Source of the DNA: Verrucomicrobiota bacterium
GTDB lineage: Bacteria > Verrucomicrobiota > Verrucomicrobiia > Verrucomicrobiales > Verrucomicrobiaceae
NCBI GenBank assembly: GCA_017301975.1
Contig: JAFLEI010000009.1
Span: 1-64,000 of the forward strand
DNA length: 64,000 nt
Reading direction: 5' to 3'
Below the pieces are notes generated by a model that worked only from the letters and a program-made list of their open reading frames with translations, ran no database searches and was not told the DNA's origin. A program made the position numbers and the translations under genes. Below are positions 3-14,453 of the stretch, one piece after another. The first letter of the stretch is position 1. Each line of letters begins with the position of its first letter.

Positions 3-221
3 GCTCTTGTTTGTCGCGATGCTCTTGGTAGTTTGCTTGGCCATGTGGGTGGTGTGTTCAGGGTTCTTTCAACACTCCCTTCTTATCACCGATCCGCTTC
101 GGTGACTCCGCCCACATGGTATCTACCCGATACCTATGGGTTCAAAGCCGAGGATCTCGCTGAGGTGATGAACCAGATGAAGCAACTCGAGCGCTTGGAG
201 TCTGGTGCGCTGATGTTTTGA
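3..221 (+). CDS. possible 3' end of a gene entering from the left edge
   Basis: This frame is open from the window edge to a TGA at 219-221, giving about 72 residues with no recognisable domain. The last third (YGFKAEDLAEVMNQMKQL onward) could be an amphipathic helix. It could equally be a chance open frame in an intergenic region. Nothing ties it to the next gene, which has its own promoter-like elements. Confidence 0.25.
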   Translation, partial: ALVCRDALGSLLGHVGGVFRVLSTLPSYHRSASVTPPTWYLPDTYGFKAEDLAEVMNQMKQLERLESGALMF

Positions 222-233
222 GGCATTCTCTGC

Positions 234-263
234 TTGGAATCCCACGCGGCATCCGTGTAGGAT
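234..263 (+). promoter_or_regulatory. promoter for the TIM-barrel gene, leaderless geometry
   Basis: TTGGAA (234-239), an 18-nt spacer and TAGGAT (258-263) resemble sigma70 -35/-10 boxes. The -10 ends 6 nt before the ATG at 270, so transcription would be expected to start at or next to the start codon. The AGGA inside TAGGAT could alternatively be read as an SD. Confidence 0.45.
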
Positions 264-5890: not shown

Positions 5891-7186
5891 ATGATGAGAT
5901 TCCTTTTTACCCTGGTATTCGGCCTGTTGGTTGTCGCGACTGCGATGCATGCCAATGGGGGTGGATATTCGAAGGGCGTCGTTTCGACGTCGGCTTTTCA
6001 GCCGATCGGCGTGGAGCAGGTAGAGATGCTGTCCGAGCTGCTGGAGATCAATCTGCACATCGAGCATGCCGACATCCGGATTGAGTACGTGCTGCATAAT
6101 CCGGGGAAGAAGGTGACGGTGGAATGCGGGTTTCCGGCGGTCTTTGACGAGGTCAACCTGTTTGCACCTCCGCCGAAGACGCCACCAAAAGCAAAGATGC
6201 TGGAAGAGTTTTCTTTGCTCGCTGACGGCAAGACAATTGCCGCGACACTTCGTGAAGACGAGGCTGGAGTCCCTGGCCACTCAGGCCGCAAGATCGAATC
6301 CTGGCACGTGGTCAAAATAACTTTCAGCGCAGGCCAGACAAGACACATCCAAGTCCGCTACCGGAACCCTTATCACATCTCTTTTTATTCGGTCTCTGAG
6401 ACGTGGAGCCGCGCCGCGCCAAGTCTGACCTATGCCTTCTCCGCCGCCGCTTTATGGGCAGGTCCCATCAAGCAAGGCACCGTGATCGTCAATGCGACCG
6501 CTGTGGATCCAACTCAGGTGCGGTTCAATCATCCAAAGCGTTTTGTGGGAGAGAACGGCACCTGGAAGTGGTCTTTCAGCGACTTTGAGCCCACATTGGA
6601 GGACGATCTTGTGATTGAAACACGGCCGGGTTTGGGAGGTTACAATGGCGGTTATGTTGTCGAAGGTGGCACAAATGACGACGGATCTCACAAAGGAGGC
6701 CGGTGGATGCGGTATGCCGATTTCACCGCCTCGGCATCCTCGGTTTTGAAGGAGCCGGACGGCACTGAGCATCAGGCGGAAAATGTGGCGGATTGGGACC
6801 GTGCAACCGCCTGGGTCGAAGGGCAGGAAAGCGATGGTGTGGGGGAGTCCATCACACTGAGGTTGAACAAACCCGCCAAGGTGAGCCGCGTGGGAATCGT
6901 GAACGGCTATGCCAAATCACGTGAGCTTTACGCGGCGAACAACCGCGTGATGATGCTCAAAGTCAGTGTCAATGATGGCAAGCCTTTCGATGTTGAGATT
7001 CCGGATGAGTATCTTGCCGATGAACATTTCTGGTTTGATCTCCCCAAGCCCGCCACGTTGGTGAAGACGATCAAAATGGTGATCGCAGCCATCTATCCAG
7101 GTTCCACCTACAAGGACACGGCCATGTCTGACATCGATCTTCTGGTTCCATTGGATAAAGCTCCGAAGATTGGGCCCGTGCGATGA
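5891..7186 (+). CDS. secreted protein with DUF4424-like region and NADase-type glycan-binding domain
   Basis: 431 residues with an N-terminal signal peptide (MMRFLFTLVFGLLVVATAMHA). The first half is a beta-rich region resembling DUF4424. From about residue 275 it resembles the NADase-type glycan-binding, discoidin-like domain: ASSVLKEPDGTEHQAENV, DRATAWVEGQ, GESITLRL, VSRVGIVNGYAKS. It likely binds a carbohydrate or cell-surface ligand in the periplasm. It overlaps the next gene by ATGA, indicating translational coupling. Confidence 0.75.
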   Translation: MMRFLFTLVFGLLVVATAMHANGGGYSKGVVSTSAFQPIGVEQVEMLSELLEINLHIEHADIRIEYVLHNPGKKVTVECGFPAVFDEVNLFAPPPKTPPKAKMLEEFSLLADGKTIAATLREDEAGVPGHSGRKIESWHVVKITFSAGQTRHIQVRYRNPYHISFYSVSETWSRAAPSLTYAFSAAALWAGPIKQGTVIVNATAVDPTQVRFNHPKRFVGENGTWKWSFSDFEPTLEDDLVIETRPGLGGYNGGYVVEGGTNDDGSHKGGRWMRYADFTASASSVLKEPDGTEHQAENVADWDRATAWVEGQESDGVGESITLRLNKPAKVSRVGIVNGYAKSRELYAANNRVMMLKVSVNDGKPFDVEIPDEYLADEHFWFDLPKPATLVKTIKMVIAAIYPGSTYKDTAMSDIDLLVPLDKAPKIGPVR

Positions 7187-9600
7187 AGGCGTGGTGTATC
7201 CTCTGCCTCCTCGCCAGCCAAGCACTGGCGCAGACGCTGCCGGTTCATATTGAAGAGTCGCATGCTGGTGCTTTCTACCATCTGGTGGAGACGCTGCCGC
7301 TGCGGAAGGCGCATACGCTGGTTTTGATTGATGCGCATTGTGATGCAAATGGCATGGCGAACTCGGATGAGATCCGCAAGGCGATCCGACGTGGGCCGAC
7401 GGTGAAGCAGCGTGGGGAGATGCTGAAGGAGTGGCGGCGGGCGGGGAAAATCCAATGCTACAACTGGATTGAGCCGCTGATGCCTGCGCCGATCGCGGAG
7501 GTGATCTGGATTCCCGCGGCACGGCTGAGCGAAGCGGAGCGCGTGGCGATGGAAACGGATGCGCGGGAATATCTGGATGCGCATGAGGAGGCGCTGCCAC
7601 GCGAAGCGGGAGCACTGGGACCGAGGTATCGGGTGATGAGCCTTGAAGGCTTTGCGCGAGAAGCGCAGACCTGGCCGGAGACGAAGCCAGTGGTGGCGAG
7701 CGTGGATCTGGACTACTTTGCCAAGAGTGCGGATGCGGAACTGGAAGGGCAAGTGGAGGGTGTGATGGATCTGCTGCTGCGGATGCGCGCGCTGCGCAGC
7801 CTGAGCTTTGCGATTTCATCGCCCTATCTGCGGAATGCGGCACAGGCGGAGCGGCTGACGACGCTGGCACTGGATTCGGCGTGGCGGATTCCGAATGCGG
7901 AGGTGCATTTTGATCCGTTTGCGAAGACGGGGCCGGATCGCTCGCTGATGGCGCGGCTGCTGGAGAGGCAGGGGAAAAGATTGCCGGTGTTTGATGTGAA
8001 GAAGGCGGGTCCGGAGCTGCGCAGCGTGCTGCTGCAAAAATGGCGGCATACGCAAGCGGAGGAACTGCTGGCGGAGTGGGCGGGAACTCCGTTTCAGCAC
8101 CGGATTGAAGTGCCGGGAAAGCTGAGGACGACGAAGAGCACGTGGGAGATGGAGTTCGATCCCAAGGCCAGCCTGGAACTGGTGCCGCCGCCGACCGGTT
8201 CGAGGGTGCGCTGGTGGGCTCTGGAAGCTGCGGAAGCGAGCTACCGGATCAGTGATGCGAATCTGGGCTTTGCCGTGAAGGCACCACGCTGGATCTGGCA
8301 GAAGCGGCGGCTTTTGGCGGAAGGTCCTGCGCTGGGGAGTCTTTCGCTCGAACAGCTTACAGGTGGCGCTGATTGCGGCACGTTTGAGGTTTATGCGGAA
8401 ATCATCCGGGATGGTGAGAGCACGCGCACGCCTGCAGAGATCGTGCGCCTGAGCAAACCGGGGACCACGGGGGGGCGGGCGGAGTGGAGCCGTCAGTTTG
8501 GGCTGCCGTATGTGTTTGATTCACGACTGCTCGTTCGTGGCGCACACACGGGAGCGGAGGCTTGTTATGGGGCAGATTGTGCGAACTTCATCACGGCGGC
8601 GCTGCGAGCGGAGGGGTGGCTGCTGCCGTGGGGCAGTCCGGCGGATGTGAAGCCGTTTTTGACGCGCTGCGATTCACGTGAGACGCCTCTGCTGCTGCAC
8701 TTTGGGTCTCATCTCGCAGCTTTGTGGGATGACCGTCCGCCAGTGGGACAGCTGGACGACGCGGACTTGTGTGTGCACCAGCTAGAAGGGCGGCCAGAAA
8801 TCCTGCCGTTCGGGAAGCTGCGTCAAAAACGAGCTGAGCCGGTGCTGATGACGATCCAGGAGCCGGAAGAGGTCATACGCATTGCGATTTGCGGAGATTT
8901 GATGCTCGGGCGCAGCGTCGCTGATCATGCGGATCCGCTGAAAAATGTGGCTCCGATTTTGAAGCGGGCAGATCTGGCGCTGGGAAATCTGGAATGCGTG
9001 ATCGGCACGGAGCAGCCGAGGGACCGCCTGCAATTGATCGCGCCGCCGAAGTGTGTGCGCCTGCTGCGGGAAGGTGGGATAGATGGTGTGAGCGTGGAAA
9101 ACAATCATGCGCTGGATTTGGGTCCGGAGGGCCGGGTGGCCACGCAGTCGGCTTTGCAGGCTGAGGGCATCGCTACCATCGGTTCGCAGGTGAAAGTCTT
9201 TGAGGTGAAGGGCAAGCGCATTGCGGTGTTTGCCTTGGATGATTCGCGGGAGGATGCCAGCGTACCGGAGCTGAATGTGAAGGCGGATTATGTCATCGCC
9301 CTGCCGCACTGGGGCAGAGAACACCGGACGACACCGACGGCGCGGCAGCGCGAGGTGGCGGTGAAGCTCCTGCAAGGCGGGGTGCATCTCATCGCGGGCA
9401 GCGGACCGCATGCCCTTCAGCCACTGGAGCACGCCTATGCGGGCAGCGTGGCCTTTTCTCTGGGCAATACTGTTTTCGACGGCCCCGGGCCGGATGCGGA
9501 ATGGGACCGGGGCGCGGTGCTGGAGGTGACGCTGGAGGCCCAAACCTGCCGGGCGGTGCGAATGCGCCTGATCGAGGTGCGTGCGCTCCCGGCAGAATGA
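7183..9600 (+). CDS. secreted three-module protein: UPF0489-like, NlpC/P60-like, CapA-like
   Basis: 805 residues with signal peptide MKAWCILCLLASQALA. Residues about 20-305 resemble the UPF0489 (C5orf22-like) arginase-fold family: VLIDAHCDANGM and VASVDLDYF carry metal-ligand-like His/Asp. Around residue 455 YGADCANFITAALRAEGW looks like the Cys-bearing helix of a papain-like NlpC/CHAP peptidase, with a candidate His in LLHFGSHLAALWDD. Residues from about 565 match CapA/PGA_cap metallophosphatases: IAICGDLMLGRSV, DLALGNLECVIG, VSVENNHALDLG, GSGPHALQP. ATG 7183 overlaps the previous stop. Enzymatic roles are inference; the fusion is seen directly. Confidence 0.75.
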   Translation: MKAWCILCLLASQALAQTLPVHIEESHAGAFYHLVETLPLRKAHTLVLIDAHCDANGMANSDEIRKAIRRGPTVKQRGEMLKEWRRAGKIQCYNWIEPLMPAPIAEVIWIPAARLSEAERVAMETDAREYLDAHEEALPREAGALGPRYRVMSLEGFAREAQTWPETKPVVASVDLDYFAKSADAELEGQVEGVMDLLLRMRALRSLSFAISSPYLRNAAQAERLTTLALDSAWRIPNAEVHFDPFAKTGPDRSLMARLLERQGKRLPVFDVKKAGPELRSVLLQKWRHTQAEELLAEWAGTPFQHRIEVPGKLRTTKSTWEMEFDPKASLELVPPPTGSRVRWWALEAAEASYRISDANLGFAVKAPRWIWQKRRLLAEGPALGSLSLEQLTGGADCGTFEVYAEIIRDGESTRTPAEIVRLSKPGTTGGRAEWSRQFGLPYVFDSRLLVRGAHTGAEACYGADCANFITAALRAEGWLLPWGSPADVKPFLTRCDSRETPLLLHFGSHLAALWDDRPPVGQLDDADLCVHQLEGRPEILPFGKLRQKRAEPVLMTIQEPEEVIRIAICGDLMLGRSVADHADPLKNVAPILKRADLALGNLECVIGTEQPRDRLQLIAPPKCVRLLREGGIDGVSVENNHALDLGPEGRVATQSALQAEGIATIGSQVKVFEVKGKRIAVFALDDSREDASVPELNVKADYVIALPHWGREHRTTPTARQREVAVKLLQGGVHLIAGSGPHALQPLEHAYAGSVAFSLGNTVFDGPGPDAEWDRGAVLEVTLEAQTCRAVRMRLIEVRALPAE

Positions 9601-9662: not shown

Positions 9663-10772
9663 ATGAAATTGAGTCTCGTCTGTTTGTTGGCCCTTGCCGC
9701 TGTGTCTTTGCAGGCGGCGGAGGATTTGTCGAAACCCATCGAAGCGCTGCGTGCCGTGGGGAAAGAAGGCCAGGGAAATGAGGCGGCGGGCAAGGCATGG
9801 CAGGAGATCGTGAAGGCGGATCCAGCCACTTTGCCGGAGGTGCTGAAGGGGATGAACGGTGCGAATCCGCTGGCGGAAAACTGGCTGCGGGCGGCGGTGG
9901 GGGTGATCGCGGATGAGGCGCTGAAGGCGAAGAAGCTGCCGGTGGAGGCACTGGTGGCGTTTTTGAAGGATACGCACAACAACCCGGGAGCGCGGGTGGT
10001 GGCGTTTGACCTGATTCACCGGGCAGACGAGAAACTGGCGGAAGAACTGACACCGACGCTGCTGGAGGACCCGAGTTCGGATTTGAGAAGACATCCGGTG
10101 GCGAAGCTGATCGCCGCAGGTGATGCGGCACTGGAGAAGAAGGACAAGGACGCGGCGATCGTGGCCTATGGCAAGGGATTGGGCGGAGCACGAGATGAGG
10201 ACCAGATCAAGGTGCTGGCAAAGAAGCTGCGCGCCCTGGACCAGAAGGTGGACCTGCCGAAGCATTTTGGATTTTTGATGAGCTGGAAGATGATCGCGCC
10301 GTTCAGCAATGCGGATCGCGCAGGGTTTGACACGGTGTATCCGCCTGAGAAGGAGCTGAAGTATGATGCGGTCTATGAGGGCAAGACGAAGGAGGCGAAG
10401 TGGGTGGATTTCACGAGCGCCGATGAGTACGGCAAGATCGACTTCAACAAGCCCTTCGGGATGGAGAAGAGCGTGGTGGGTTATGCGGCGACGGATTTTT
10501 TCAGCACGGAAGACCGTCCGGCGGAGATCCGCATCGGCTGCAAGGACGGCTGGAAGGTGTGGCTGAACGGCGAGCTGCTGTTTGCGCGTGATGAGTACCA
10601 CCGTGGTGCCAAGCTGGATCAGTACAAGCTGCCGTGCCAGCTGAAGAAGGGGAAGAACACGATCCTGGTGAAGTGCTGCCAGAACGAGCAGACGGAGCAG
10701 TGGACGGTGGAGTGGGAATTCCAACTGCGTGTGTGCGATGCGACCGGGACGGCGATCCTGGCGGCGAAGTGA
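9663..10772 (+). CDS. secreted protein of unknown function with HEAT-like helices and a C-terminal beta domain
   Basis: 369 residues. The signal peptide is MKLSLVCLLALAAVSLQAA. The first 200 residues are helical and charged, with repeats of the type seen in HEAT/TPR solenoids. The C-terminus (IRIGCKDGWKVWLNGELLF ... KGKNTILVKCCQ) looks like the galactose-binding or PA14-like beta-sandwich often appended to Verrucomicrobia/Planctomycetes exported proteins. ATG 9663 is chosen because it begins the signal peptide. It precedes the PQQ-propeller gene by 11 nt. Confidence 0.7.
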   Translation: MKLSLVCLLALAAVSLQAAEDLSKPIEALRAVGKEGQGNEAAGKAWQEIVKADPATLPEVLKGMNGANPLAENWLRAAVGVIADEALKAKKLPVEALVAFLKDTHNNPGARVVAFDLIHRADEKLAEELTPTLLEDPSSDLRRHPVAKLIAAGDAALEKKDKDAAIVAYGKGLGGARDEDQIKVLAKKLRALDQKVDLPKHFGFLMSWKMIAPFSNADRAGFDTVYPPEKELKYDAVYEGKTKEAKWVDFTSADEYGKIDFNKPFGMEKSVVGYAATDFFSTEDRPAEIRIGCKDGWKVWLNGELLFARDEYHRGAKLDQYKLPCQLKKGKNTILVKCCQNEQTEQWTVEWEFQLRVCDATGTAILAAK

Positions 10773-13571: not shown

Positions 13572-14453
13572 ATGTCAGTGAAAGCCGGGACGAAGGATCA
13601 ACCAGCCTTTTTGAAGTGGAGCGGAGGGATGCACACACTTGTGGGTCCCTGTTTCATTGGCCGTCGTTCGGACAATGACATTCCCATCAACAATGTGCAG
13701 GCTTCAAGACGCCACGCGGTGCTGATGAACTTGAACGACGACTGGTGGGTCAATGACCTCGGGAGCCGGAACGGAGTCATCGTCAATGGGCTGCGCCTGA
13801 GCTGCGCCCGCCGGCTGCGGAACGGGGATGAGATCCGCATCGCCAATCAACGGCTGATGTTCTGCAACTCGGCACAGCCTGCTCCGCATCACAGCTCAAT
13901 CATGGGCAAGACCACGGAGCTTGCGCCTCAGACCTTGAGCGATGCGCCGCTCTCTTCGTCCGCCTGCGAACTCCTCATCGTCACAGAACAGGGAGAAATC
14001 CTTGAGGGGGACAAAGCGGCGCACTGGTTCTTCGGTAAAACTCTGGAGCGCGCCCCAGGTGCTCTCCATTATTTTCTGCCGCCGACGGTGCGCCAATGGC
14101 TGCAGCAGCTTGCCGAAGAAAATGAGAACATCTTTCCTCCGTTGGAAATGGAGCAGGAGGGGCATCGCATCGTGCTCTCGCTCGCGCGTTGCAGGGACAA
14201 CCGATACTATTTGCTGGGCCGCGTGGAATCACTGGAGGTCTCCATTGAACGCCTGCAGAGCCTCGGCCTCACCGAGCGTGAGGCTGAAGTGATGCACTGG
14301 GTCTGCGAGGGCAAGAACAACCCCGAGATCGCACAGATTCTTGACGTCACGCTGCACACGGTGAACCGGCACAACGAGCATATCTTCAAAAAGCTGGCGG
14401 TGGACAACCGGCACAAGGCCATCAAGACCGTGAAAGAGCGGCTGGGGTTGTGA
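13572..14453 (+). CDS. FHA domain / LuxR-type HTH transcriptional regulator
   Basis: 293 residues. Residues about 15-100 form a forkhead-associated phosphothreonine-binding domain (GPCFIGRRSDNDIPI, ASRRHAVLM, VNDLGSRNGVIVNG). Residues about 130-215 are a PAS-like or unassigned linker. The C-terminus is a GerE/LuxR helix-turn-helix (LTEREAEVMHWVCEGKNNPEIAQIL, TVNRHNEHIFKKLAV). The design implies a transcription factor that senses Ser/Thr phosphorylation rather than aspartate phosphorylation or acyl-homoserine lactone. No Ser/Thr kinase is in the window. A palindrome upstream may be its own operator. Confidence 0.88.
   Translation: MSVKAGTKDQPAFLKWSGGMHTLVGPCFIGRRSDNDIPINNVQASRRHAVLMNLNDDWWVNDLGSRNGVIVNGLRLSCARRLRNGDEIRIANQRLMFCNSAQPAPHHSSIMGKTTELAPQTLSDAPLSSSACELLIVTEQGEILEGDKAAHWFFGKTLERAPGALHYFLPPTVRQWLQQLAEENENIFPPLEMEQEGHRIVLSLARCRDNRYYLLGRVESLEVSIERLQSLGLTEREAEVMHWVCEGKNNPEIAQILDVTLHTVNRHNEHIFKKLAVDNRHKAIKTVKERLGL

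What the first reader, a model, noticed from the sequence alone, without database searches (positions are those of the whole stretch)
7183..9600. Three-module secreted protein: UPF0489-like + papain-like Cys region + CapA-like
Seen: an 805-residue exported protein joins an arginase-fold-like domain, a CADCANF-type Cys helix with candidate His, and a full CapA metallophosphatase-like domain. Known: each family occurs separately; I do not know of this order. Inference: wall or capsule polymer processing enzyme. Coupled by ATGA to a lectin-like protein.
Basis: partly seen in the sequence, partly recalled or inferred. Interest (0 to 1): 0.55.

Follow-up and report, generated by a model that had tools for sequence, protein, structure and literature searches.

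The report
Exported three-enzyme peptide-processing fusion protein
A probably exported bacterial protein joins three enzyme-like modules (an arginine-trimming fold, a wall-type peptide cutter and a capsule-type metal enzyme) and is inherited together with a partner gene that looks sugar-binding, which points to an uncharacterised machine for processing peptides outside the cell.

Summary
Window 7183-9600 (+) is one 805-residue gene, overlapping by ATGA the upstream gene 5891-7186 (NADase-type discoidin domain). It is not a frame error: relatives lie in stop-free frames in 42 of 386 genomes of the order; 41 of the 42 are matched at least over residues 35-651. AlphaFold (pLDDT 89.7) gives three catalytic folds. 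Residues 18-280 resemble peptide arginase OspR (Z 17.2), all six metal ligands kept. Residues 428-556 are NlpC/P60-like (Z 10.8; Cys466, His510, His532). Residues 562-805 are CapA/PGA_cap (E 1e-42; nearest solved structure the peptide epimerase MslH, Z 26). In 40 distinct sequences these residues never change where aligned, except one His510 to Tyr. The partner lies directly upstream in 35 of 38 distinct loci; all 31 partner-positive genomes also carry the enzyme, G077 as a fragment. The order UPF0489-like, NlpC/P60, CapA is a new architecture of known families, seen only in Verrucomicrobiota in these searches. The capsule reading is weakened for poly-gamma-glutamate: CapC in 0 of 20 carriers. 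Best reading: an exported peptide- or amide-processing enzyme with three active sites, held to a glycan by its partner. Substrate and activities are untested.

The parts
5891..7186 (+). Partner gene, 431 aa: signal-like start (by eye), weak DUF4424-like part, C-terminal F5/8 (NADase_transloc / NADase_discoid) putative glycan-binding domain
   Evidence: NADase_transloc 107.8 bits vs cut-off 27; NADase_discoid 127.3 vs 38; DUF4424 21.3, below its cut-off 27; directly upstream of the target in 35 of 38 distinct loci with room
7183..7186 (+). ATGA stop/start overlap of the two genes
   Evidence: sequence; a start at the same -4 overlap is possible in 18 of the 35 loci with the partner
7183..7233 (+). 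Residues 1-17, putative Sec signal peptide, no lipobox seen
   Evidence: read by eye; model residues 1-14 have pLDDT under 50
7234..8022 (+). Residues 18-280, UPF0489/peptide-arginase-like module; putative metal ligands H27, D50, H52, D54, D175, D177
   Evidence: OspR 8brp Z 17.2, 214 aligned, rmsd 4.1, model 18..248; best PDB chain by profile but weak, E 0.084 for the sequence and 2.7 for the stretch; ligands invariant in the rows with a letter there, 38 to 40 of 40
8023..8463 (+). Residues 281-427, helices then beta-rich linker domain, fold not assigned
   Evidence: strands between 307 and 424 in the model
8464..8850 (+). Residues 428-556, NlpC/P60-like module; Cys466, His510, His532
   Evidence: VIA Z 10.8 to 4xcm, 105 aligned, 2.5 A; Foldseek best E 0.024, none at 0.001; hhalign to 18 NlpC/P60 segments of relatives E 2e-7, prob 93.6, with two unrelated controls negative; helix begins at C466
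8866..9597 (+). Residues 562-805, CapA/PGA_cap calcineurin-like module; D572, E604, N641, H642, D645, H709, G711, E713, H743
   Evidence: Pfam PGA_cap 146.5 bits vs cut-off 27; MslH Z 26.4, 237 aligned, 2.6 A, 24-25% identity

Best explanation
This is an exported enzyme with three separate active sites that processes peptide (or isopeptide) chains outside the cytoplasm, working with the co-inherited glycan-binding-type protein encoded just upstream. Proposed steps, all inferred: (1) module 1, a two-metal UPF0489/arginase-type centre, hydrolyses guanidino groups of arginine residues in a peptide to ornithine plus urea; (2) module 2, an NlpC/P60 Cys-His-His site, cuts an amide bond of the chain, gamma-glutamyl bonds being the usual choice of this family (recalled); (3) module 3, a CapA metal centre, acts on the chain or its end; (4) the partner's discoidin-type domain holds the enzyme on a glycan (peptidoglycan or exopolysaccharide). 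Shown here: one reading frame, three folds (two of them by predicted model plus distant profile match), conserved candidate catalytic residues, purifying selection on every module, and co-inheritance with the partner. Not shown: export, any activity, the substrate, or the cellular site.
For: Folds. Residues: six arginase metal ligands, Cys466, His532 and the CapA centre invariant in the rows with a letter among 40 distinct sequences (window protein included), His510 in 39 of 40. dN/dS against 4 orthologues: 0.12-0.13 (module 1), 0.08-0.12 (module 2), 0.19-0.24 (module 3). Architecture: relatives in 42 of 386 order genomes, 41 matched at least from residue 35 to 651; the profiles of modules 1 and 2 rang in the phylum samples only in these long proteins (7 of 288 genomes; 8 of 387). 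Partner: directly upstream in 35 of 38 distinct loci; the only other same-strand gene family shared by most of 21 diverse neighbourhoods, 18 of 21; all 31 partner-positive genomes of 239 are among the 42 enzyme-positive ones. Published relatives of both outer modules act on peptides: OspR (PMC10028609, passages and section 4), BipC (PMC12707348, passages), MslH (PMC10406935, passages).
Against: Window protein scores for UPF0489 (13.2 bits, cut-off 27) and NlpC/P60 (no hit at E 1) are below curated cut-offs. The residue next to the first metal-binding His, Glu11 in OspR and proposed there to hold the guanidine, is never Glu here: Ser 20, Asn 17, Asp 1 of 38 rows with a letter. One MslH metal ligand (His261) is an invariant Gly711 here, so epimerase chemistry in module 3 is not indicated. 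MslH was the only molecule among PDB sequences matched by this protein and OspR the only arginase-type row in the list, so 'nearest to peptide enzymes' partly reflects what has been solved. The profile match to OspR is weak. No third gene family is linked that could supply a peptide substrate (ORFs under 90 residues not examined). G077 has the partner but only a fragment of the enzyme.
Confidence: 0.5

Rival explanations
1. Peptidoglycan remodelling enzyme: the NlpC/P60 module cuts stem peptides, the CapA module acts on the same gamma-D-glutamyl chain, the arginase-fold module acts on a wall-linked group rather than on Arg residues, and the partner binds wall glycan.
For: Many of the NlpC/P60 rows in the fold list are peptidoglycan hydrolases by title; signal-like start; glycan-binding-type partner.
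Against: Present in only 8 of 24 genomes of the genus, own genome included, so not a core wall enzyme; no wall-binding Pfam domain on the enzyme at E up to 1; module 1 has no obvious wall substrate.
Confidence: 0.25
2. Capsule or poly-gamma-glutamate processing.
For: PGA_cap domain well above cut-off; NlpC/P60 and CapA are both linked to gamma-glutamyl chains by family knowledge (recalled).
Against: CapC of the PGA synthase found in 0 of 20 carrier genomes, B. subtilis control positive; apart from the partner no same-strand gene family is shared by most of 21 neighbourhoods (neighbours were not annotated one by one). A foreign polymer as food is not excluded.
Confidence: 0.12
3. Nutritional hydrolase: the protein degrades arginine-rich polymers of the environment and frees urea, ornithine and short peptides.
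For: Signal-like start, patchy distribution (42 of 386), partner with a discoidin-type domain.
Against: Apart from the partner no same-strand gene family, hence no common transporter or catabolic gene, is shared by most of 21 neighbourhoods.
Confidence: 0.13

Closest known systems
Peptide arginases (OspR, BipC; pfam12640/UPF0489)
   Same: Arginase-type fold, six metal ligands, DxHxD, invariant DLD in the third motif, mostly Phe four residues after the first His (36 of 38) (motifs from PMC10028609 and PMC12707348)
   Different: Signal-like start and fusion to two other modules; Ser/Asn (one Asp) in place of the Glu that precedes the first His; below the Pfam cut-off; no third gene family shared nearby
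NlpC/P60 endopeptidases (e.g. 4xcm, LytE 8i2d)
   Same: Fold and Cys-His-His arrangement
   Different: Extra segment of about nine residues before the Cys in the profile alignment; embedded in a larger enzyme; below Pfam detection in the window protein
CapA/PGA_cap proteins and the lasso peptide epimerase MslH
   Same: Calcineurin-like fold, D572/E604/N641/H642/D645/H709/H743
   Different: HWGxE-type stretch in place of MslH's HxH metal pair; fused behind two other modules; carriers lack CapC (0 of 20)

Membership tests
Peptide arginase / UPF0489 | Six metal-binding residues (H; DxHxD; DxD) | tested here: met
   H27 38/38, D50, H52, D54 39/39, D175, D177 40/40 of rows with a letter
Peptide arginase / UPF0489 | Motif EEH(N/H)EAF with Glu before the first His | tested here: not met
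   that position is Ser 20, Asn 17, Asp 1 of 38; motif from PMC10028609 section 4
Peptide arginase / UPF0489 | Pfam UPF0489 gathering score 27 bits | tested here: not met
   window protein 13.2 bits; 15 of 28 relatives match at E up to 1, best E 0.0014
Peptide arginase / UPF0489 | Arginase fold | tested here: met
   OspR Z 17.2, 214 aligned, rmsd 4.1; other arginases were not ranked against it
Peptide arginase / UPF0489 | Arg to Orn plus urea on peptides | not testable with these tools
   needs an assay
NlpC/P60 | Fold | tested here: met
   Z 10.8, 105 aligned, 2.5 A, NlpC/P60 rows lead the list; Foldseek's first four rows are NlpC/P60-type, best E 0.024
NlpC/P60 | Catalytic Cys, His and third polar residue | tested here: met
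   Cys466 40/40, His510 39/40, His532 40/40; Cys and first His aligned with the NlpC/P60 profile; third residue assigned by position, inference
NlpC/P60 | Pfam NLPC_P60 match of the protein itself | tested here: not met
   no hit at E 1 for the window protein; 1 of 28 relatives, E 0.0013
CapA / PGA_cap | Pfam PGA_cap over cut-off | tested here: met
   146.5 bits vs 27; 28 of 28 relatives match at E up to 1
MslH lasso peptide epimerase | NCBIfam NF038314 cut-off 700 bits | tested here: not met
   47.3 bits
MslH lasso peptide epimerase | Metal ligand His261 of the HxH pair | tested here: not met
   Gly711 in 39/39 rows with a letter (alignment)
Poly-gamma-glutamate capsule system | CapC in the same genome | tested here: not met
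   0 of 20 carriers, control positive

The most novel reading that the evidence does not exclude
An extracytoplasmic peptide arginase fused to its own peptidase and a third metal enzyme: one polypeptide that converts Arg to Orn in exported peptides, trims them and edits their ends, held to a glycan by a dedicated co-inherited partner. In the papers seen here (passages only) the characterised peptide arginases are separate enzymes of RiPP gene clusters; that those act in the cytoplasm is my inference.
Probability: 0.2. Interest if true: 0.8.

Novelty: new variant of a known kind. Interest (0 to 1): 0.5.

Why it matters
Modules 1 and 2 fall below the Pfam cut-offs in the window protein, so by such annotation it would be called only a CapA family protein. 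The fusion puts an arginase-type, a cysteine-amidase and a CapA active site in one probably exported chain, with a co-inherited partner, so the role of CapA and UPF0489-like domains outside capsule and RiPP systems becomes directly testable. If module 1 really deguanidinates peptides outside the cell, it would be a new place and purpose for that chemistry and a ready-made tool enzyme.

Tried and rejected
Frame-error reading: rejected. PGA capsule reading: no CapC in 20 carriers. MslH-type epimerase: one metal ligand replaced by Gly, score far below cut-off. RiPP cluster: no third same-strand gene family shared by most of 21 neighbourhoods (only the 14 largest clusters were printed, ORFs under 90 residues were not examined, neighbours were not annotated). 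Plasmids: 38 records, none with one place covering 80%; the 8 listed match in the CapA region only. Profile search of the middle in the PDB gave only chance-level hits, with an NlpC/P60-type protein (3pbi) last at E 1.7. hhalign of module 1 to stand-alone UPF0489 proteins: E 0.00029 but prob 40, 37 columns only. My first NlpC/P60 comparison (E 4.9e-7) contained one wrong-frame fragment, L193, among its 19 segments; repeated without it: E 2e-7, prob 93.6, with negative controls A2 (E 0.4) and A5 (E 0.07). In the full-model fold lists shown, no arginase other than OspR and no NlpC/P60 row appear, because the CapA domain fills them. Literature: searches for UPF0489, peptide arginase, MslH and combinations listed no title on this fusion; searches matched thousands of papers of which 12 and 8 were listed, so this is weak. 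PMC12703449 was seen in passages; the papers as listings only. Rows dropped: alignment A1 used 28 of the 31 strong relatives (L003, 88% identical to the window protein, and partial L017, L019 left out); one search reduced 69 ORFs to 40 distinct; the partner count of 38 leaves out L017 (no upstream room), duplicates L039, L040, L041, L047, and L124, which one search did not examine; in L030 the upstream partner is cut by the contig end. The samples differ in size (386 and 239 genomes); 11 enzyme-positive genomes are not partner-positive, and one search does not show which of them it sampled.
Full report
Observation. The ORF at 7183-9600 on the + strand is a single 805-codon frame whose ATG overlaps the TGA of the upstream ORF 5891-7186 as ATGA. 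Pfam finds PGA_cap at residues 567-766 (146.5 bits, cut-off 27), UPF0489 only below its cut-off (13.2 bits, residues 21-111) and nothing in the middle. NCBIfam's MslH epimerase model scores 47.3 bits against a cut-off of 700.

Relatives. Among 386 genomes of the order (own genome included), 42 have a match at E 1e-20 or better, all in frames without internal stops; 41 of the 42 are matched at least from residue 35 to 651, and G077 only over residues 19-146. Among the 24 genomes of the genus (own included), 8 carry it and the other hits are CapA-only, so it is an accessory gene. Profiles of module 1 and module 2 rang only in these long proteins in phylum samples (7 of 288 genomes; 8 of 387). 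The full profile rang in 107 of 387 genomes, 8 of them at full length (one, G608, with an in-frame TGA) and the others over its CapA end.

Structure. AlphaFold on 28 relatives gave mean pLDDT 89.7 and pTM 0.87. VIA-align placed residues 562-805 on MslH (Z 26.4, 237 aligned, 2.6 A) and residues 18-248 on the peptide arginase OspR (Z 17.2, 214 aligned, 4.1 A, 16% identity). OspR is also the first PDB chain for the module 1 profile, but weakly: E 0.084 for the sequence, 2.7 for the stretch itself. The middle alone (39 sequences, pLDDT 87.0, pTM 0.81) resembles NlpC/P60 structures: Foldseek's first four rows (best E 0.024, probability 0.99; none at 0.001) and the head of the VIA list (Z 10.8 to 4xcm, 105 aligned, 2.5 A). 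hhalign against 18 NlpC/P60 segments of related genomes gives E 2e-7, probability 93.6, and aligns Asp-Cys466 with the Asp-Cys of those proteins and His510 with their His; the same profile against module 1, and the middle against stand-alone UPF0489 proteins, gave nothing (E 0.4 and 0.07). The beta-rich region of about residues 300-425 was not assigned.

Residues. In 40 distinct sequences, the window protein included (69 ORFs before removal of duplicates), the six arginase ligands, Cys466, His532 and the CapA centre (D572, E604, N641, H642, D645, H709, H743) are invariant in every row that has a letter; His510 is Tyr in one, L027. OspR uses His12, Asp39, His41, Asp43, Asp165 and Asp167, with Glu11 proposed to hold the guanidine (PMC10028609, passages); the residue at the Glu11 place is Ser, Asn or Asp here. 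MslH uses Glu44, Asn87, His259 and His261 for Ca(II) and the dyads His88/Asp91 and His295/Asp11 (PMC10406935, passages); all but His261, which is Gly711, are matched. The third module 1 motif reads DLD in 40 of 40, followed by Tyr or Phe in 31 of 40 and then Phe in 36 of 40, nearer to the LDIDLDYF of peptide arginases than to the SxDxDxxDP of conventional ones (motifs from PMC10028609).

Selection. Against 4 orthologues (84-89% identical) dN/dS is 0.12-0.13 for module 1, 0.17-0.25 for the linker, 0.08-0.12 for module 2 and 0.19-0.24 for module 3. All modules are under purifying selection.

Partner. The upstream protein has an NADase_transloc/NADase_discoid domain. A relative lies directly upstream on the same strand in 35 of 38 distinct loci with room; L006, L032 and L033 lack it there. 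In genome G015 (locus L006) a copy exists on another contig. In 21 diverse neighbourhoods the only same-strand gene families shared by most are the enzyme (21) and the partner (18); the other large clusters are opposite-strand shadow frames, and the rest occur in 7 loci or fewer at scattered places. Of 239 order genomes, 31 have the partner at E 1e-25 or better and all 31 are in the enzyme-positive list, G077 with an enzyme fragment; G221, enzyme-positive, has a contig-end partner fragment weaker than that limit. The pair is therefore a two-gene unit. In 10 of the 31 genomes two copies of the partner were found, the second matched only from about residue 100 in G071 and G095.

Capsule test. 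CapC (PF14102) was found in 0 of 20 carrier genomes with B. subtilis positive.

Interpretation. The protein has three intact-looking hydrolase or metal sites whose characterised relatives act on peptides or gamma-glutamyl amides, has a signal-like start, and travels with a protein bearing a glycan-binding-type domain. I commit to an exported peptide- or amide-processing enzyme tethered to glycan (0.5). Peptidoglycan remodelling (0.25), nutritional degradation (0.13) and capsule processing (0.12) are the rivals. Against my reading stand the low family scores, the missing Glu11 equivalent, the missing His261 equivalent, the absence of a linked third gene, and the fact that MslH was the only PDB molecule matched by sequence and OspR the only arginase-type row seen, so the nearest solved relatives say less than they seem to.

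Novelty. Each module belongs to or resembles a known family; the order of the three and the signal-like start before an arginase-like module were not described in any title listed by the searches. I file it as a new variant of known kinds. I do not file module 1 as a peptide arginase or module 3 as an MslH epimerase, because a defining feature of each was tested and not met; they may still work alike.

Noticed in passing
L210, L211, L212, L221, L225; genomes: The partner gene is often present as two tandem copies in front of the enzyme (5 of 21 neighbourhoods; two copies in 10 of 31 genomes, the second matched only in part in two of them).
   Followed up: partly
L164-L187: Stand-alone UPF0489 proteins in other Verrucomicrobiota families, 24 of 194 genomes at E 0.001 and 20 over the cut-off, most with EEHH- and DIDLDYF-like motifs; possibly peptide arginases, not followed further.
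   Followed up: partly
L005 (G013): The partner gene is split into two frames while the enzyme stays open; may be an assembly error.
   Followed up: no
window 13572-14453 (+): By eye, a protein joining an FHA-like domain to a LuxR-type helix-turn-helix; not tested.
   Followed up: no
window 9663-10772 (+): Downstream protein of 369 aa without a convincing family match (MATH 16.2 bits, cut-off 21.2); found beside the enzyme in L002, L003 and L005 but not in the more distant loci.
   Followed up: partly
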